DNA of 39,488 nt, taken from the NCBI GenBank assembly GCA_020723285.1, contig DYJE01000042.1, forward strand, positions 1-39,488. The letters are read 5' to 3'. Both the position numbers and the translations under genes were made by a program. The notes beneath the pieces were generated by a model. That model saw only the letters and a list, made by a program, of their open reading frames with translations. It searched no databases and was not told the origin of the DNA. This document shows, piece after piece, positions 32,924 through 39,488 of the stretch. Positions within the stretch are counted from its first letter, which is position 1. Every line of letters begins with the position of its first letter. The stretch is from Desulforapulum autotrophicum. GTDB taxonomy: Bacteria; Desulfobacterota; Desulfobacteria; Desulfobacterales; Desulfolunaceae.

Positions 32924-34324
32924 TTATTCCTTCCTGAAGAGATCACCCCGGATATCGAACCGTTTCATGACCTGTTGAAGGGCCTGGCGTTCCAGGCCCA
33001 TATTCCGCGCCGCCTGGCTGACATTGCCCTGGCATTCGGACAGGTGGTGGGAAAGATAGGCCCGGTTGAATTCCAGCAGGGCCTTTTCCTTGGCGTCCTT
33101 ATAAGAAAGGTTCGTGGACACTGGGCCGTTTTTCATGGTGGCTGCCTTGTCCGGCCGGGTCTCAAGCCCGGCGTCGGTCACGGTGACCGCAGGGCCGTCC
33201 GCGTAGAGTATGCCCCGGATAATCACGTTTTCAAGTTCCCGGATATTGCCTTCCCAGGGTTTCGTCATCAAAACGTCCAGAAGGTCAGGGGACAGGGTTT
33301 TCAGGGGTTTGCCCATGTTCCGGCAGTGCTTTTCAAGTAGATGGCTTGCAATGAGGGGGATGTCCTTGTCCCGGTCGCGCAAAGGGGGCATGGCGATGGG
33401 CAGCACGTTCAGCCTGTAATAGAAATCCTCCCTGAACTGGCCTTTTCGTATAAGATCCGGGAGGTTCTGGTTGGTGGACGCGATGATTCGTGTGTTCACT
33501 TTGATCAACCGGGTGTCCCCCAGGGGTTTGATCTCCTTGTCCTGAAGCACCCGGAGCAGTTTGGTCTGGATCGCCGGACTGATTTCACCGATTTCATCAA
33601 GAAATATCGTGCCGTTATCCGCTTCCTGAAACAATCCGGTCTTGTTGCCCGTGGCATGGGTGAAGGCCCCTTTTCTGTAACCGAACAGCTCGCTTTCCAG
33701 GATGGCCTCGGGAACCGTGGGGCAGTTTACCGTGATAAACGGTCCGCTTCGCCGTTCACTCATGTTGTGAATGGCCCGTGCCACCATGTTTTTTCCCGTA
33801 CCCGATTCTCCGGTGATCAGCACGGTCACATCCGTCCCTGCCACCATGGCCATGGTTTCGTACACTTTTTTCATGGCCATGCTTTGACCCACCAGATCCT
33901 GATGCAGACCGCCGCTGAAGCAGCTCCGCTGGAGCATACGGTTTTCCTTTAACAGCCCGCTCCTCTCCAGGGCTTTCCTGAGGCTCACCACCAGAGCGTC
34001 ATGGTCAAAGGGCTTGGTCACAAAATCGTAAGCCCCGTTCTGCATGGCGTGAACCACCATGTCGATGCTGCCGAAAGCGGTCATCATCACCACGGTCTGG
34101 TCAGGCCGGTGGTCCTTGATCCGCCTGAGAAGTTCCAGGCCGTCCATGCCCGGCATCTTGATGTCGCTCAGCACCAGGTCAAAAGCCTCCCGGTCCAGAA
34201 CGGCCAGGGCTTCGTCCGCCGAAGAAGCCGTGACGATGCGCGCGTCGAGTTCGGGGGACAAGGTCCGGGCCAGGAGGTTCAGCATGTCTCTTTCGTCATC
34301 GATGATCAGTATGGCGTGTTTCAT
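32924..34324 (-). CDS. NtrC-family sigma-54-dependent response regulator
   Basis: A 466-residue regulator. The receiver domain occupies residues 1-120 with phosphoacceptor D54 (VLSDIKMPGMDG) and K104. The AAA+ domain covers about 143-375 with Walker A GESGTGK (172-178) and Walker B-like GTIFLDEIGE. A Fis-type helix-turn-helix lies at the C-terminus (GNVSQAARNMGLERQALQQVMKRF). The sigma-54 contact loop reads GAFTHA (219-224) instead of GAFTGA. It is the third gene of the minus-strand operon, nine bases after the kinase gene, and AAGGG precedes its ATG. Its likely target is the sigma-54 promoter at 36399; another target is possible. Confidence 0.95.
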   Translation of the reverse strand: MKHAILIIDDERDMLNLLARTLSPELDARIVTASSADEALAVLDREAFDLVLSDIKMPGMDGLELLRRIKDHRPDQTVVMMTAFGSIDMVVHAMQNGAYDFVTKPFDHDALVVSLRKALERSGLLKENRMLQRSCFSGGLHQDLVGQSMAMKKVYETMAMVAGTDVTVLITGESGTGKNMVARAIHNMSERRSGPFITVNCPTVPEAILESELFGYRKGAFTHATGNKTGLFQEADNGTIFLDEIGEISPAIQTKLLRVLQDKEIKPLGDTRLIKVNTRIIASTNQNLPDLIRKGQFREDFYYRLNVLPIAMPPLRDRDKDIPLIASHLLEKHCRNMGKPLKTLSPDLLDVLMTKPWEGNIRELENVIIRGILYADGPAVTVTDAGLETRPDKAATMKNGPVSTNLSYKDAKEKALLEFNRAYLSHHLSECQGNVSQAARNMGLERQALQQVMKRFDIRGDLFRKE

Positions 34325-34333
34325 GGGAGACCC

Positions 34334-35509
34334 TTATCGTTCATTGGTTATGTCCGGGAGCGGGAGTGACAGGGTGAAAGTGCTGCCCTCACCCTCCCTG
34401 CTTTCCACACGGATATCGCCCCCGTGATCCTTGATGATGCCGTAGGTCACGGAAAGACCTAAGCCCGTGCCCTGGCCGGTGGGTTTCGTGGTGAAAAAAG
34501 GCTCGAAAATACGGGTGATGTCACACTCGGCGATGCCTTTTCCATTGTCGATGACCCTAATTTCCCCATGGATGTGGTCCGGTGACCGCCGGGTTTCAAG
34601 GGTCAGGACGCCGCCATCGTCCATGGCGTGGCGGGCGTTCATCACCAGGTTGACGAACACCTGCCTGATTTTCTCCCTGTTCAGGTGAAGGAAGGGAAGG
34701 CTTGAGTCGTAATGCTTCACCACCGCTATTTTCCCCGAATCCGTATGCTTGGTGATGAAATCGAGAACATCATCCAGAATCAGGTGGACGTCACAGGGGC
34801 TTTTGTCCGTTCCTGAGCTCCGGGAAAAACTTAAGAGGTCCGCCACAATCCGCTGGCAGTGTTTCACATGCTTTTCGATGGTCTTGAGATCGTTTTTCCG
34901 TTCGGACTCTTCCGTCTCCGACCGGATCAGAAGCTGGCAGTATCCCAGAATGACCCCCAGGGGGTTGTTGATTTCATGGGCCACACCGGCGGAGAGTTCA
35001 CCGATGGCTGCCAGCTTTTCTGTCTGAGACATGTGTTTTTCAAGGACCATGCGCTGGGCCGACTCGGCCGCGAGGTCCCGGGTTCTTTTTTCCACACGGG
35101 CTTCCAGGCTCTGGTTCAGGGACACCAGCTGCTCATGGGCCTGCTGAAGGGCGTTCTGATCTTTGAGGATCCGGATGTAGATTTTCCAGATCTGACGGAA
35201 AAACAGGGTGATGGAGGCCACAAGAATCAACGCCAGGGTGTTGACCGAGCCGGAATAGGGCTGGAGAGCCTTCCATGCCTCGTCAAATCCGTCCATGATC
35301 AGGAACTGTTTCACGATATGCCCGGTGCTTCTGGACACGGCGAAAACAACGAGGCCGGAACAGACCCACACCAGATAAATCCAGATGGCGTTGCCTTTGT
35401 CATGGGCCCTGATGTCGAACGTAAGTTTCAGGCAAAGGAAACCCATGATGATCATGGACAATGAGCCGATTATATCCACCACCACAATGGGCATGTAGCT
35501 CAGGGTCAT
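34334..35509 (-). CDS. Membrane-bound sensor histidine kinase
   Basis: A 391-residue kinase. Three membrane segments (about 7-28, 42-60 and 90-110) replace a large periplasmic sensor domain. One segment edge carries SRSTGHIVKQFLI with a buried His. A coiled coil (about 115-165) leads to the HisKA domain with H178 in GVAHEINNPLGVILGY, then HATPase_c (N box NLVMNARHA, G1 DNGKGI, G2 GTGLGLSV). No PAS domain is present, so sensing probably happens in the membrane or through a partner. It overlaps the upstream 160-residue membrane protein gene by four bases (ATGA) and is followed by the response regulator, its evident cognate. Confidence 0.94.
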   Translation of the reverse strand: MTLSYMPIVVVDIIGSLSMIIMGFLCLKLTFDIRAHDKGNAIWIYLVWVCSGLVVFAVSRSTGHIVKQFLIMDGFDEAWKALQPYSGSVNTLALILVASITLFFRQIWKIYIRILKDQNALQQAHEQLVSLNQSLEARVEKRTRDLAAESAQRMVLEKHMSQTEKLAAIGELSAGVAHEINNPLGVILGYCQLLIRSETEESERKNDLKTIEKHVKHCQRIVADLLSFSRSSGTDKSPCDVHLILDDVLDFITKHTDSGKIAVVKHYDSSLPFLHLNREKIRQVFVNLVMNARHAMDDGGVLTLETRRSPDHIHGEIRVIDNGKGIAECDITRIFEPFFTTKPTGQGTGLGLSVTYGIIKDHGGDIRVESREGEGSTFTLSLPLPDITNER

Positions 35510-35988
35510 TGTTCCGCCCCTTTACCCTCGCCTGAGCCAAGGGAAGCCTTGATCCGCCGAAGGCCCGTGTACAGCAAGAAAAGGGCCGGAACACAGATCA
35601 GATGGTCCAGCTTGCCCAGGTAATAGACCAGAGGAAGCCAGGATGAACCGCCCCCTGACAGGGTGACGGAAAAGGGGGTTGTCCTTTCCACCGAGACCAG
35701 CCGCGCCTGTTCGTCCAGAAAGTGCATCAGGATCACGTCGATATTCCACAGGCCCATGAGAACGGCAAATCCCATGATGTAACGCCAGCCCGGATGCCCC
35801 AGGAGCCTGCCCTCCCTCAGCCAGTAAACGAATGCTCCCATGGACACGAGAAAAAACACATGGCCCATCTGATGGACCACGATGCCCTCGTTTCCCCCGT
35901 GGGCCTGGATGGCCAGGAGCGGTTCTGGAAACAGCGTCCAGGCCAGACTGATGCATGCGGTCATGCGTAAATATCGTTCTCGTTTCAT
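35506..35988 (-). CDS. Small His-rich membrane protein, putative sensor partner of the kinase
   Basis: A 160-residue protein that I do not recognise as a named family. It has an N-terminal signal or membrane segment (ISLAWTLFPEPLLAIQA) and about three more hydrophobic segments (VFFLVSMGAFVYWL, YIMGFAVLMGLWNIDVIL, LICVPALFLLYTGL). Histidines sit at AHGGNEG, VHQMGH, LMHFLDE and LDHLIC, mostly at or inside membrane segments, a pattern compatible with heme or metal binding. It is first in the operon and overlaps the kinase gene by four bases, so the two are almost certainly made in equal amounts. Acting as signal receptor for the kinase is inference. Confidence 0.8.
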   Translation of the reverse strand: MKRERYLRMTACISLAWTLFPEPLLAIQAHGGNEGIVVHQMGHVFFLVSMGAFVYWLREGRLLGHPGWRYIMGFAVLMGLWNIDVILMHFLDEQARLVSVERTTPFSVTLSGGGSSWLPLVYYLGKLDHLICVPALFLLYTGLRRIKASLGSGEGKGAEQ

Positions 35989-36037
35989 GATGATTCTCTC
36001 AAGAATGGATCGTTCTTTTTCTCAGATGACGCTAAAT

Positions 36038-36066
36038 AATATAAAACCCCGCCGTTCGTGTCTTAA
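36038..36066 (-). promoter_or_regulatory. Candidate sigma-70 promoter of the membrane protein/kinase/regulator operon
   Basis: On the minus strand TTAAGA and TATATT (five of six -10 positions) are separated by 17 bases, about 45 bases before the ATG at 35988. It suggests sigma-70 expression of the sensor operon, in contrast to the sigma-54 promoter facing the other way. Confidence 0.45.
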
Positions 36067-36130
36067 CCGATATAAGGCAGCAATCCATATGCCACGACGT
36101 AAAAATAATGATTATGGGGCCTGGGCCTGA

Positions 36131-36142
36131 TGATGCGCATCA
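36131..36142. promoter_or_regulatory. Perfect 12-bp palindrome, candidate regulator site
   Basis: TGATGCGCATCA is a perfect palindrome between the divergent operons, about 270 bases upstream of the sigma-54 promoter at 36399 and about 65 bases upstream of the candidate kinase-operon promoter. It could be an enhancer site for the NtrC-type regulator. Confidence 0.4.
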
Positions 36143-36170
36143 CACACATCTGCAAGAAACGTTGGGCAGC

Positions 36171-36186
36171 GCATTAAAAATAATGC
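36171..36186. promoter_or_regulatory. 16-bp dyad, second candidate regulator site
   Basis: GCATTA-AAAA-TAATGC is a perfect inverted repeat 28 bases beyond the palindrome at 36131, placing the two centres about 42 bases apart, close to four helical turns. Paired sites on one DNA face are usual for NtrC-type activators. The two dyads share GCAT-type half-sites only in part. Confidence 0.35.
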
Positions 36187-36398
36187 ACATGAAATGTCAC
36201 ACGCCCATCGAATGGATTTCTTGCTCTTTTTATAGCATGCCATATTTTTTTGTCACAGCCATATTTTTATTGCACAAGGTGTTCATCAACCGTGAATCCG
36301 GTCCATCCTTTGGCTTTGCGAGTTTTCAAATATCTTGTAATGTCAAATGGTTGTCAATTGCGCAAGGGGGGCATCCCACAAAGACAGCCTTCTTCCAC
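36187..36398. other. AT-rich spacer between candidate enhancer sites and the sigma-54 promoter
   Basis: No gene is seen. The hexamer TGTCA(C/A) recurs on the plus strand at 36195, 36251, 36341, 36352 and again at 36427. These could be binding half-sites or chance in AT-rich DNA. The segment contains T-tracts that might favour DNA bending. Confidence 0.35.
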
Positions 36399-36414
36399 TG
36401 GTATGGAATTTGCT
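36399..36414 (+). promoter_or_regulatory. Candidate sigma-54 promoter (-24/-12) of the DUF169-TauE operon
   Basis: TGGTAT-GGAAT-TTGCT matches TGGCAC-N5-TTGCW, with the invariant GG (36400-36401) and GC (36412-36413) at exact spacing. Transcription would start near 36425, 40 bases before the DUF169 ATG. It faces away from the NtrC-type regulator's operon. Confidence 0.65.
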
Positions 36415-36464
36415 CCTGAATCAGGCTGTCACTACACAACGTTCATTATTATGGAGACAAAACC

Positions 36465-37247
36465 ATGAATTACAAACAAGCAATGGAAACACTGATCTGG
36501 AACTTCAGACTGGATTACGACCCTGTGGGCATCCGCTATGTTTTCGATGAATCAGAAAAAAGCTCGCTCAAGGTGACCCACACATCCAAGGCGAAATTGT
36601 CCTACTGCATGTACCTTGCGGCGGCCCGGTCCGCAAGGCACGCCCTTTTCATGGACCCTGAACGCCTGCTCTGCAAGAACGCCCAGCCGGTGTTCGGGTT
36701 CCGTGGTCTTGAAAAGGGAACCGACGGGAAGAACCACGAAAAATACCTGATCGATCCCGAGCTTTCATGGCAGGCGCCCCAGGAAAAACAGCGCCTTGAG
36801 GAAGGGGCCTGCAAAGGGATTTTCATGGCTCCCCTCGAAAACTACGATGCCGCCGGCGTTGATCCCAGCGTGGTGTTTCTCATGGTCACACCGTTCCAGG
36901 CCTACCACATCCTGAACGATTACATGGCGGCCATGAACAGACCCAATCTCACCTTTTTCGCCACACCCAACTCGGCCGTCTGTTCAGGCAGCGTATACAC
37001 CTACAACAAAAATACCGCCAACATGACCACCATGTGCGCCGGATCCAAAGCCTCCGGAAAAACAGAGATGAACTATATGAATCTGTTCATTCCCGGCGGC
37101 CAGATCATCGCCACCGTCGAACAGCTGGTGAAACGCATCGAAGTCAAGGGCGGTCCGTCACTTCTGGGCGCGGGCGGCCAGCCCTGGCCCGGTCTGGACG
37201 TGTGCTCGGGCTGTCCCATGATCAAGTTTGAAAAAGTCGAATCCTGA
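36465..37247 (+). CDS. DUF169 family protein
   Basis: A 260-residue cytoplasmic protein of the DUF169 family, seen as the N-terminal LIWNFRLDYDPVGIRYVFDE (family pattern RP(V/L)GV) and a Cys-rich body: SYCMYLAAAR, LLCKNAQPVFGF, GACKGIFMAPL, AVCSGSVYTYN, MCAGSKASGKTEM and the C-terminal CSGCPMIKFE. The repeated cysteines suggest a metal or cofactor site. The family has no firmly established biochemical function. GGAG lies upstream of the ATG. It is the first gene behind the sigma-54 promoter and lies 34 bases before the TauE gene. Confidence 0.85.
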   Translation: MNYKQAMETLIWNFRLDYDPVGIRYVFDESEKSSLKVTHTSKAKLSYCMYLAAARSARHALFMDPERLLCKNAQPVFGFRGLEKGTDGKNHEKYLIDPELSWQAPQEKQRLEEGACKGIFMAPLENYDAAGVDPSVVFLMVTPFQAYHILNDYMAAMNRPNLTFFATPNSAVCSGSVYTYNKNTANMTTMCAGSKASGKTEMNYMNLFIPGGQIIATVEQLVKRIEVKGGPSLLGAGGQPWPGLDVCSGCPMIKFEKVES

Positions 37248-37281: not shown

Positions 37282-38646
37282 ATGCAAAAACCGCGTAAGA
37301 TTATCACATTGACCTTGGTCACCCTGGTGTGTCTGACCCTTGCTCTGACGTTTGCCCAGGCTGAGGATGCCACGACAGCGAAAACCGCCGATACCGCTGT
37401 GGTCACAGCGCCTGCATCGTCCGCCGATCCGGCGGCAGCTCCGGCCCCTGACACCGCCGCTCAGGCAACGGAAACACCGGCACCCGCTGCCAGCGCATCG
37501 GTTACCCCTGAAGTGGCCGCCCCGGCCGCTGTCCCCGCTTCAACAGAACCGGCCAAACCCCAGGGCAAAGGCAGCAAACTTGAAAAAGCCATTGCCGCAG
37601 CCCCCGCAGGAACGGAAAAAGGCCAGATCGACCCCGCGAAACCCGCAGGCTTCCTTGGAATTCCAGGCGGCCCCAATGTCAACGTGCTCCTCGCCCTGCT
37701 CTGGGCCGTATGGGTGGGCTGGATCTTCTCCACGGTGGGTGCTTTCGGCGGCGTCATGGCCGGTGTGGGTCACATGAGCGTTTTCGGATTCGGCAACTAT
37801 GCAGGTTCTTTCAAAAAAACAGCTCCGGACCTTGGAAAAGTCATCACCGACTCCATCAAAGCCTCCAACCAGTTCCTCGTGGGACTCTCCGCAGCCATCA
37901 GCAGTTTCAACTACCTGAAAATGAAACGCCTTGTTCTTCCCCTGGCTCTAAGCCTGGGTGCCGGCTCTCTTCTCGGCGCATGGGGATCGGCCGCGCTTTC
38001 AGCCGGAAAGCTGGATTTCAAATCATACCAGGGCTACTTCGGACTTTTCGTTCTGGGGCTGGGCTGCTGGCTGCTTTATGAAACAACCCCCGCCGGTCAA
38101 GCCAAAAAGAAAACCGCCAAGGAAGCGGCCCAGGCCTTCGAAGCCAACGCAAAAAAATTGAAAAGCGGCGAACAGGTGGATCCGGCCCATGTGGGCCTCA
38201 AGATCAACAAACTGACCCTTACGGCCTGTGAATTCACGTTCTTCGGCGTACCCTTCCGGTTCAACACCGCAGTTCCCTTCATCGGCGGCATCATTATCTC
38301 CGCCATCGCGGCGTTCCTGGGTGTGGGCGGCGGTTTCCTCCTCGTTCCCTTTCTCACCAGCGTGACCCAGCTTCCCATGTACCTTGCCGCAGGAACTTCG
38401 GCCCTGGCGGTCCTGATCAGCATGGTGACCAGCATCGTCACCCTGATCAGCAAGGGCACCCCCATTGACTGGATGCTCATCGGTATCGAGCTTGTGGGTA
38501 TCGCCATCGGTTCCGTCATCGGCCCCATGACATCCAAGTACTTTTCTGACGTGACCCTGAAAAGGATCTTCATTGTCCTTTCCGTCTACGTGGGGCTGGG
38601 TTATACGCTGAAGGGCTTCTTTGGAATCAAATTCCCCGGCGTGTGA
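37282..38646 (+). CDS. TauE/SafE family membrane exporter with Ala/Pro-rich N-terminal region
   Basis: A 454-residue protein. Residues 1-28 are a signal peptide ending AQAED. About 30-100 are an Ala/Pro/Thr-rich linker predicted to be periplasmic. From about 125 there are about eight membrane segments in two TauE halves, seen as GAFGGVMAGVGHMSVFGFG and FLGVGGGFLLVPFLTSVT. The family is associated with export of sulfite, sulfoacetate or other organosulfur anions. The long pre-region is unusual, since most family members start directly with a membrane segment. The frame is open to 37228, but the ATG at 37282 gives the signal peptide and follows a GAGGAGAG stretch. It is co-transcribed with DUF169. 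Confidence 0.88.
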   Translation: MQKPRKIITLTLVTLVCLTLALTFAQAEDATTAKTADTAVVTAPASSADPAAAPAPDTAAQATETPAPAASASVTPEVAAPAAVPASTEPAKPQGKGSKLEKAIAAAPAGTEKGQIDPAKPAGFLGIPGGPNVNVLLALLWAVWVGWIFSTVGAFGGVMAGVGHMSVFGFGNYAGSFKKTAPDLGKVITDSIKASNQFLVGLSAAISSFNYLKMKRLVLPLALSLGAGSLLGAWGSAALSAGKLDFKSYQGYFGLFVLGLGCWLLYETTPAGQAKKKTAKEAAQAFEANAKKLKSGEQVDPAHVGLKINKLTLTACEFTFFGVPFRFNTAVPFIGGIIISAIAAFLGVGGGFLLVPFLTSVTQLPMYLAAGTSALAVLISMVTSIVTLISKGTPIDWMLIGIELVGIAIGSVIGPMTSKYFSDVTLKRIFIVLSVYVGLGYTLKGFFGIKFPGV

Positions 38647-39288: not shown

Positions 39289-39488
39289 TCAAAAGAGAGA
39301 TGAGAACTGGCGTGATGTGCCGGTCAGCGTGGCGATGCCGCTGCGGTATTGCGCTCCGGTGTCGTCGTAAACATACAGGGCATCGGCCTGACCGGTGGTT
39401 TTGGTCCGAACAAGCTGGCCTTGGGTGTTGTAAATAAACAACGGTGTCCAAAATTGGCCATAAAAGCCATGAAAATTCATATGATTAT
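39289..39488 (-). CDS. C-terminal end of a YD/RHS-repeat-like protein, cut by the window edge
   Basis: The frame is open to the right edge and ends at a TGA at 39289. It contains IYNTQGQLVRTKTTGQADALYVYDDTGAQYRSGI, which fits a YD-repeat (YDxxGxL...YxYDxxG) of RHS-type surface or toxin proteins. The rest of the gene is outside the window, so it cannot be judged intact or broken; the last 15 residues after the repeat do not look like a toxin domain. It may also be a remnant. Confidence 0.45.
   Translation of the reverse strand, partial: NHMNFHGFYGQFWTPLFIYNTQGQLVRTKTTGQADALYVYDDTGAQYRSGIATLTGTSRQFSSLF

What the first reader, a model, noticed from the sequence alone, without database searches (positions are those of the whole stretch)
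36399..36414. Sigma-54 promoter in front of DUF169
The GG and GC dinucleotides are at the exact -24/-12 spacing, TTGCT matches the -12 box fully, and the element is 40 bases from a leader-type start. The adjacent divergent operon encodes a sigma-54 activator.
Basis: partly seen in the sequence, partly recalled or inferred. Interest (0 to 1): 0.55.

Follow-up and report, generated by a model that had tools for sequence, protein, structure and literature searches.

The report
Shared-enhancer sigma-54 promoter pair
In a sulfate-reducing bacterium, the predicted switch in front of a DUF169 gene looks real: it is one half of a back-to-back pair of sigma-54 promoters that share conserved activator binding sites, a layout kept in many related species, which makes the control of a poorly understood transporter gene set testable.

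Summary
In detail: TGGTATGGAATTTGCT lies at 36399-36414 (+), predicted start of transcription 36425. The reading is supported and can be extended. A second -24/-12 element, TGGCATATGGATTGCT (36094..36079, minus strand), faces the divergent operon for a small hydrophobic protein, a histidine kinase and an NtrC-type regulator. With a matrix trained on relatives only, these two are the best sites of the window (19.8 and 18.4 bits; third 8.5). Between them lie three copies of a palindrome (about TGCAATAAATTTATTGCA) found in related loci, most likely the regulator's binding sites. Two outward sigma-54 promoters with such palindromes between them recur in 56 of 100 fetched loci (51 of the 56 with the promoters 306-415 bp apart), mostly beside TauE-type transporter genes; the commonest palindrome spacings, 19 and 68 bp, are those of the window. 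The kind is known (ZraR drives divergent sigma-54 promoters); this regulon and motif were not met in the papers searched. The DUF169-TauE pair resembles the Desulfovibrio 'nitrate cluster', where disruption of several genes gives nitrate resistance. No start site or binding was measured.

The parts
36399..36414 (+). -24/-12 element of the DUF169-TauE operon, TGGTATGGAATTTGCT; predicted +1 at 36425
   Evidence: conserved in L024/L079, one record
36079..36094 (-). -24/-12 element of the divergent MEM-kinase-regulator operon, TGGCATATGGATTGCT; predicted +1 at 36068
   Evidence: best sigma-54 site of the window (19.8 bits)
36167..36190 (.). putative activator site 1 (palindrome), 22.4 bits
   Evidence: best hit in the window of a model trained without the window
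36235..36258 (.). putative activator site 2, weak (9.6 bits) but at the commonest spacings, 68 bp from site 1 and 19 bp from site 3
36254..36277 (.). putative activator site 3, 18.5 bits
36453..36456 (+). GGAG, likely ribosome binding site of DUF169
   Evidence: sequence
36465..37247 (+). DUF169 (PF02596) protein, 260 aa, six cysteines invariant in 27 aligned sequences
37282..38646 (+). TauE/SafE (PF01925) transporter, 454 aa
38776..39279 (+). P3, about 167 aa, no Pfam match, start uncertain; a relative often follows TauE in other genomes
35506..35988 (-). MEM, 160 aa, hydrophobic by eye, no Pfam match; related frames in 168 of 389 genomes of the order
34334..35509 (-). histidine kinase, 391 aa (HisKA, HATPase_c)
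32924..34324 (-). NtrC-type response regulator, 466 aa (receiver, sigma-54 AAA+ with GAFTHA loop, Fis-type HTH)

Best explanation
36399-36414 is a working sigma-54 promoter, one arm of a bidirectional control region. Inferred mechanism: the kinase, perhaps with the small MEM protein as its sensing partner, phosphorylates the NtrC-type regulator; the regulator binds three palindromes at 36167-36277 and, by DNA looping and ATP hydrolysis, opens sigma-54 polymerase waiting at two outward promoters. Rightward (36399) it turns on DUF169-TauE-P3, leftward (36094) its own operon, a positive feedback. Shown by sequence: the elements, their layout and its conservation. Inferred: binding by this regulator, activation, autoregulation. 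The signal is unknown; a sulfur oxyanion such as thiosulfate taken up by the TauE protein is my best guess.
For: The two best sigma-54 sites of the window face outward from one intergenic region. Divergent pairs of such sites lie upstream of TauE in 28 of 45 TauE rows of the first 60 loci; the consensus has 55 exact hits there against 7 for its mirror, and with one mismatch allowed 22 against 0 within 400 bp upstream of TauE. A palindrome was found de novo between the pairs; trained without the window it hits 32 of 34 further loci (68 hits) against 0-2 hits for each of 20 permuted controls, and its two best window hits (22.4, 18.5 bits) lie between the promoters; 0 of 300 Markov copies of the region reach 18.5. 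27 of those 34 loci have the pair with a palindrome inside. 39 of 57 loci (window included) have palindromes 19 bp apart, and 68 bp is the next commonest spacing; the window has both. 3 of 34 genome-wide matches of a palindrome pattern are in this region. The regulator gene is in the divergent operon; its GAFTHA loop is among the variants that PMC4641369 expects to work (passage) and its HTH is conserved in relatives. One RpoN gene. No sigma-70-like site faces DUF169 in the scan of 35950-36500.
Against: No transcript or binding data. The bare motif is common genome-wide. The middle palindrome is weak (9.6 bits; best site elsewhere in the window 9.5), and single permuted matrices reach 6.0-16.2 bits somewhere in the window. 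A sigma-70-like TTGACA-17-GATATT faces the regulator operon at 36357..36329, so that operon need not depend on sigma-54 alone. Relatives without the layout: L080 (82-83% identical DUF169) has neither a site upstream of DUF169 nor TauE nearby; 44 of 100 fetched loci, many of them DUF169 genes outside this gene set, gave no pair with palindrome. In 5 of 6 Desulfoluna-type loci the palindromes are present but the -12 box is TTGTA. Regulators of L131 and L190 differ in the HTH (LDRQ) yet have palindromes, so HTH and motif do not covary strictly. Window DNA was part of the first word count, though not of the trained models; many loci are close kin of one another.
Confidence: 0.88

Rival explanations
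1. Both promoters and the palindromes are real, but a different sigma-54 activator of the same cell binds them; the neighbouring regulator serves other genes.
For: Activators of this genome were not counted and no binding was tested. In L162 and L163 a TauE-P3-DUF169 set lies beside a PAS-type sigma-54 activator instead, though no palindrome was found there.
Against: The palindrome is found mainly beside the TauE and MEM-kinase-regulator genes in the fetched loci. Loci L134-L137 and L094, whose regulator reads MDRQALQQ in the HTH, show no palindrome of 14 bits or more; but L138, of the same type, shows three such hits, so this covariation is suggestive only.
Confidence: 0.08
2. 36399-36414 is a chance match and DUF169 is read from another promoter.
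For: The bare pattern matches 29 times in the genome against 20 for its mirror, and 9 of 27 checked matches lie inside frames of 150 codons or more.
Against: Rank two of the window by a matrix trained on relatives, 15 of 16 bases kept in L024 against 36 of 59 around it, paired with palindromes in the recurring layout.
Confidence: 0.03
3. Only the leftward promoter is activated; the rightward one binds sigma-54 polymerase but is little used.
For: The leftward site is slightly stronger (19.8 against 18.4 bits).
Against: In relatives a promoter of this type lies upstream of TauE in most rows that have a pair.
Confidence: 0.03

Closest known systems
ZraR with zraP/zraSR of Salmonella and E. coli
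   Same: NtrC-type response regulator drives divergent sigma-54 promoters of its own two-component operon and of a target gene (PMC4987338 passage) and binds the spacer between them (PMC8249747 passage)
   Different: target is DUF169-TauE instead of the chaperone ZraP; kinase and regulator score far under the ZraS and ZraR cut-offs (191.4 of 479, 354.2 of 760 bits)
Desulfovibrio nitrate cluster Dde_0597-0605 / DVU0251-0245
   Same: DUF169 and TauE genes beside a kinase and a response regulator (PMC4001038: abstract, section 14 and passages); L162 carries TauE-P3-DUF169 with a PtxB-like protein, kinase, receiver and the start of a PPDK domain, L163 the same order as far as a kinase-like sensor cut by the end of the stretch
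   Different: there the response regulator is annotated as a receiver only and its DVU gene is 360 bp, too short for a sigma-54 domain; the divergent layout was not seen in L162 or L163
Two-component sigma-54 regulons of Desulfovibrio vulgaris (TSUP permease operon DVU0132-0133)
   Same: TauE-family permease bound by sigma-54 response regulators (PMC4641369, passages)
   Different: other regulators (DVU0110, DVUA0057); orthology and motif likeness not tested

Membership tests
sigma-54 (-24/-12) promoter | GG and GC with ten bases between, TTGC at -12 | tested here: met
sigma-54 (-24/-12) promoter | RpoN in the genome | tested here: met
   one Sigma54_DBD match, C19
sigma-54 (-24/-12) promoter | upstream activator sites and an activator with GAFTGA-type loop | tested here: met
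   by sequence only: palindromes, GAFTHA
sigma-54 (-24/-12) promoter | RpoN-dependent start 12 bases after the GC | not testable with these tools
   needs 5' end mapping
ZraPSR system | kinase and regulator pass the curated ZraS/ZraR scores | tested here: not met
   191.4 of 479 and 354.2 of 760 bits
ZraPSR system | divergent sigma-54 promoters with activator sites between | tested here: met
   layout only
Desulfovibrio nitrate cluster | DUF169, TauE, hypothetical protein, PtxB, kinase, receiver, PEP/pyruvate-binding protein and phosphatase together | tested here: not met
   window has DUF169, TauE, P3, kinase and a regulator with a sigma-54 domain; the window's end at 39488 and the helicase gene after the regulator leave no PtxB or PPDK beside them as far as seen
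Desulfovibrio nitrate cluster | orthology of the DUF169 and TauE proteins with Dde_0597/0598 | not tested
   the Dde sequences were not fetched

The most novel reading that the evidence does not exclude
The TauE-DUF169 (or TauE-molybdopterin oxidoreductase) gene set is an inducible uptake and processing system for a sulfur oxyanion such as thiosulfate across Desulfobacterales, switched by a so far undescribed two-component system through a shared three-site enhancer, and is the order's counterpart of the transporter through which nitrate enters and inhibits Desulfovibrio.
Probability: 0.25. Interest if true: 0.55.

Novelty: new member of a known kind. Interest (0 to 1): 0.4.

Why it matters
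It turns a single motif match into a proposed regulon with a candidate activator, binding motif and layout that recurs in many genomes of one order of sulfate reducers. The target genes resemble the poorly annotated cluster in which several disruptions give nitrate resistance in Desulfovibrio, which bears on the control of souring by nitrate. Signal and substrate can now be sought with a reporter.

Tried and rejected
Bare consensus scan of the window: not enriched. Leader peptide at 36451: no such closed frame in L024. Genome-wide search for more targets of the palindrome: 34 sites up to 2 mismatches; the pattern is its own mirror, so its printed control says nothing, I wrote it after seeing the sites, and I did not examine the other 31 places. 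Of 27 other sigma-54 pattern sites none has a palindrome of 14 bits or more within 400 bp; the best, L200, has 12.3 bits inside the downstream frame. A molybdopterin oxidoreductase like that of relatives: best match in the own genome 29% identical, so probably no ortholog in a genome 97% complete. DUF169 fold: good model (mean pLDDT 87.3, residues 234-242 under 50), no PDB sequence match at E 1, Foldseek best E 0.16, VIA best Z 5.7, many rows thiolase-type: uninformative. Papers: no account of this regulon or motif in the listings of searches, in an open-access library that lacks most subscription journals; passages read in PMC5840216, PMC10102598 and PMC6052904 and PMC3333781 gave nothing on it.

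I had also given 305-415 bp for all pairs; 5 of 56 lie outside (up to 648).

Full report
Observation. The element TGGTATGGAATTTGCT is at 36399-36414 on the plus strand, with GG at 36400-36401 and GC at 36412-36413. It fits TGGYRYRNNNNTTGCW exactly. Counting -12 at 36413 gives +1 at 36425, 40 bases before the DUF169 ATG at 36465. The ATG at 36451 that may have been called a leader start overlaps the likely ribosome site of DUF169, and the matching frame in L024 has no stop before DUF169.

A second element. On the minus strand TGGCATATGGATTGCT (36094..36079) faces the divergent operon (predicted +1 36068, ATG at 35988): a 160-aa hydrophobic protein (MEM), a histidine kinase, and an NtrC-type response regulator. 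The genome (5.44 Mb, 92 contigs) has one RpoN. Exact pattern hits in the genome are 29 against 20 for the reversed pattern. Besides the two here, 27 were looked at: 15 promoter-like, 9 inside frames of 150 codons or more, 3 neither. The pattern alone is therefore weak evidence.

Relatives. The genome belongs to the family of Desulfoluna: contigs of its family neighbours have the lengths of records named Desulfoluna. DUF169 relatives were found in 25 of 389 genomes of the order at E 1e-40 (own genome included), MEM relatives in 168 of 389. I fetched 60 loci and later 40, from the best listed matches and not at random. The genes TauE, P3, MEM, kinase and regulator form a recurring set. In 33 of the 55 pair rows the gene on one side is a molybdopterin oxidoreductase related to that of L103 (Pfam); in L091, L093 and L133 it is DUF169.

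Promoter pairs. In the first 60 loci the consensus has 55 exact hits against 7 for its mirror; with one mismatch allowed, 22 lie within 400 bp upstream of TauE against 0. 28 of 45 TauE rows have a divergent pair with at most two mismatches in all, 306-415 bp apart except one of 648. L079/L024 (one record, 85-86% identical DUF169) keeps TGGTATGGAACTTGCT 66 bases before its ATG: 15 of 16 bases agree, against 4 of 10 upstream and 32 of 49 downstream; its contig ends just upstream, so its other sites are unknown. Of the 25 DUF169 loci among those 60, 5 have a site within 400 bp (L079, L087, L091, L093, L133); DUF169 elsewhere is mostly without one.

Activator sites. A word-pair count on 29 regions between the promoters (window included) gave TGCA-N10-TGCA in 18 of 29, the commonest palindromic pair; in three shuffles the most frequent pair of any kind reached 8, 7 and 7. 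A 24-mer matrix trained on the 28 other regions reads CAGTGCAATAAATTTATTGCACTG; its best hits in the window's 39.5 kb are 36167 (22.4 bits), 36254 (18.5), 36235 (9.6) and, elsewhere, 9.5. On 34 loci not used for its training it gives 68 hits in 32 loci; each of 20 column-permuted matrices gives 0-2 hits. In the window the permuted matrices peak at 6.0-16.2 bits. Some of these 34 are close kin of training loci, so they are not fully independent. 27 of the 34 have the promoter pair with a palindrome inside.

Layout. In 56 of 100 fetched loci, and in the window, the pair with palindromes is present; in 51 of the 56 the promoters are 306-415 bp apart, in 5 farther, up to 648; the window's 305 bp is the shortest. 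One to four palindromes lie inside; 39 of the 57 have two exactly 19 bp apart, and the next commonest spacing is 68 bp (10 cases). The window has 68 and 19. This register supports even its weak middle site. 19 bp is close to two helical turns, as expected for neighbouring dimers (inference).

Promoter matrix. A matrix from 102 sites of relatives ranks 36094 minus (19.8) and 36399 plus (18.4) first and second of the window; the third scores 8.5. 2 of 100 Markov copies of the window hold a site as good as 36399. Its training sites were picked by the consensus, so it sharpens the consensus and is not independent of it; by the same matrix 16 of the 27 other genome sites score 18 or more, so the score itself is not special to this place, the palindromes are.

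Mechanism. The regulator has the receiver, the AAA+ domain with GAFTHA, among the variants that PMC4641369 expects to work (passage), and a Fis-type HTH. 67 regulators, window included, were aligned (one without its HTH); ERQ(A/S)LQQ is common, and L094 and L134-L138, which lack the pair, read DRQALQQ after M; L138 nevertheless has three palindrome hits of 14 bits or more, and L131 and L190 (LDRQ) have palindromes too, so the covariation is only suggestive. The best reading is a shared enhancer that fires both promoters, with autoregulation. A sigma-70-like site at 36357..36329 toward the regulator operon could supply the basal level.

Biology. In D. alaskensis and D. vulgaris, insertions in several genes of a cluster with TauE, kinase and receiver genes (and, in D. 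alaskensis, DUF169) give nitrate resistance, not nitrite resistance; the DVU0245 mutant stayed sensitive and DVU0250 gave conflicting results; the authors suggest a leaky thiosulfate transporter (PMC4001038: abstract, section 14, passages). L162 has TauE-P3-DUF169 beside a PAS-type sigma-54 activator, PtxB-like, kinase, receiver and PPDK genes, L163 the same order as far as a kinase-like sensor cut by the end of the stretch. This links the window's gene trio to that cluster by gene content only; neither L162 nor L163 shows the palindrome, and the best sigma-54-like site there, in L163, scores 12.6 and lacks the GC. The Dde proteins themselves were not compared.

Known kind. ZraR drives divergent sigma-54 promoters of zraSR and zraP (PMC4987338 passage; binding in PMC8249747 passage). 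The window looks alike in layout but is no ZraPSR by score.

Noticed in passing
36357..36329, minus strand: Sigma-70-like TTGACA-17-GATATT facing the kinase/regulator operon; could give basal expression.
   Followed up: no
36465-37247: DUF169 has six cysteines invariant in 27 aligned sequences (C48, C70, C173, C191, C247, C250), which may mean metal or cluster binding or redox chemistry; no known fold recognised.
   Followed up: partly
L080/L023 and L017: A same-family genome keeps an 83% identical DUF169 without TauE, kinase or promoter nearby, and a second match covering only residues 198-259 about 3 kb away.
   Followed up: no
L081-L086 upstream of TauE: In 5 of 6 Desulfoluna-type loci with palindromes of 15-21 bits the -12 box reads TTGTA, GC changed to GT; L086 has TTGCT.
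   Followed up: partly
L200 (own genome C25, 330675..330660, minus): Very strong sigma-54 site (26.4 bits) with a 12.3-bit palindrome hit about 148 bases downstream, inside the frame; a further target or chance.
   Followed up: no
L103 226-2310 and the like: Molybdopterin oxidoreductase of about 694 aa divergent from TauE in many relatives; no close match in the own genome.
   Followed up: partly
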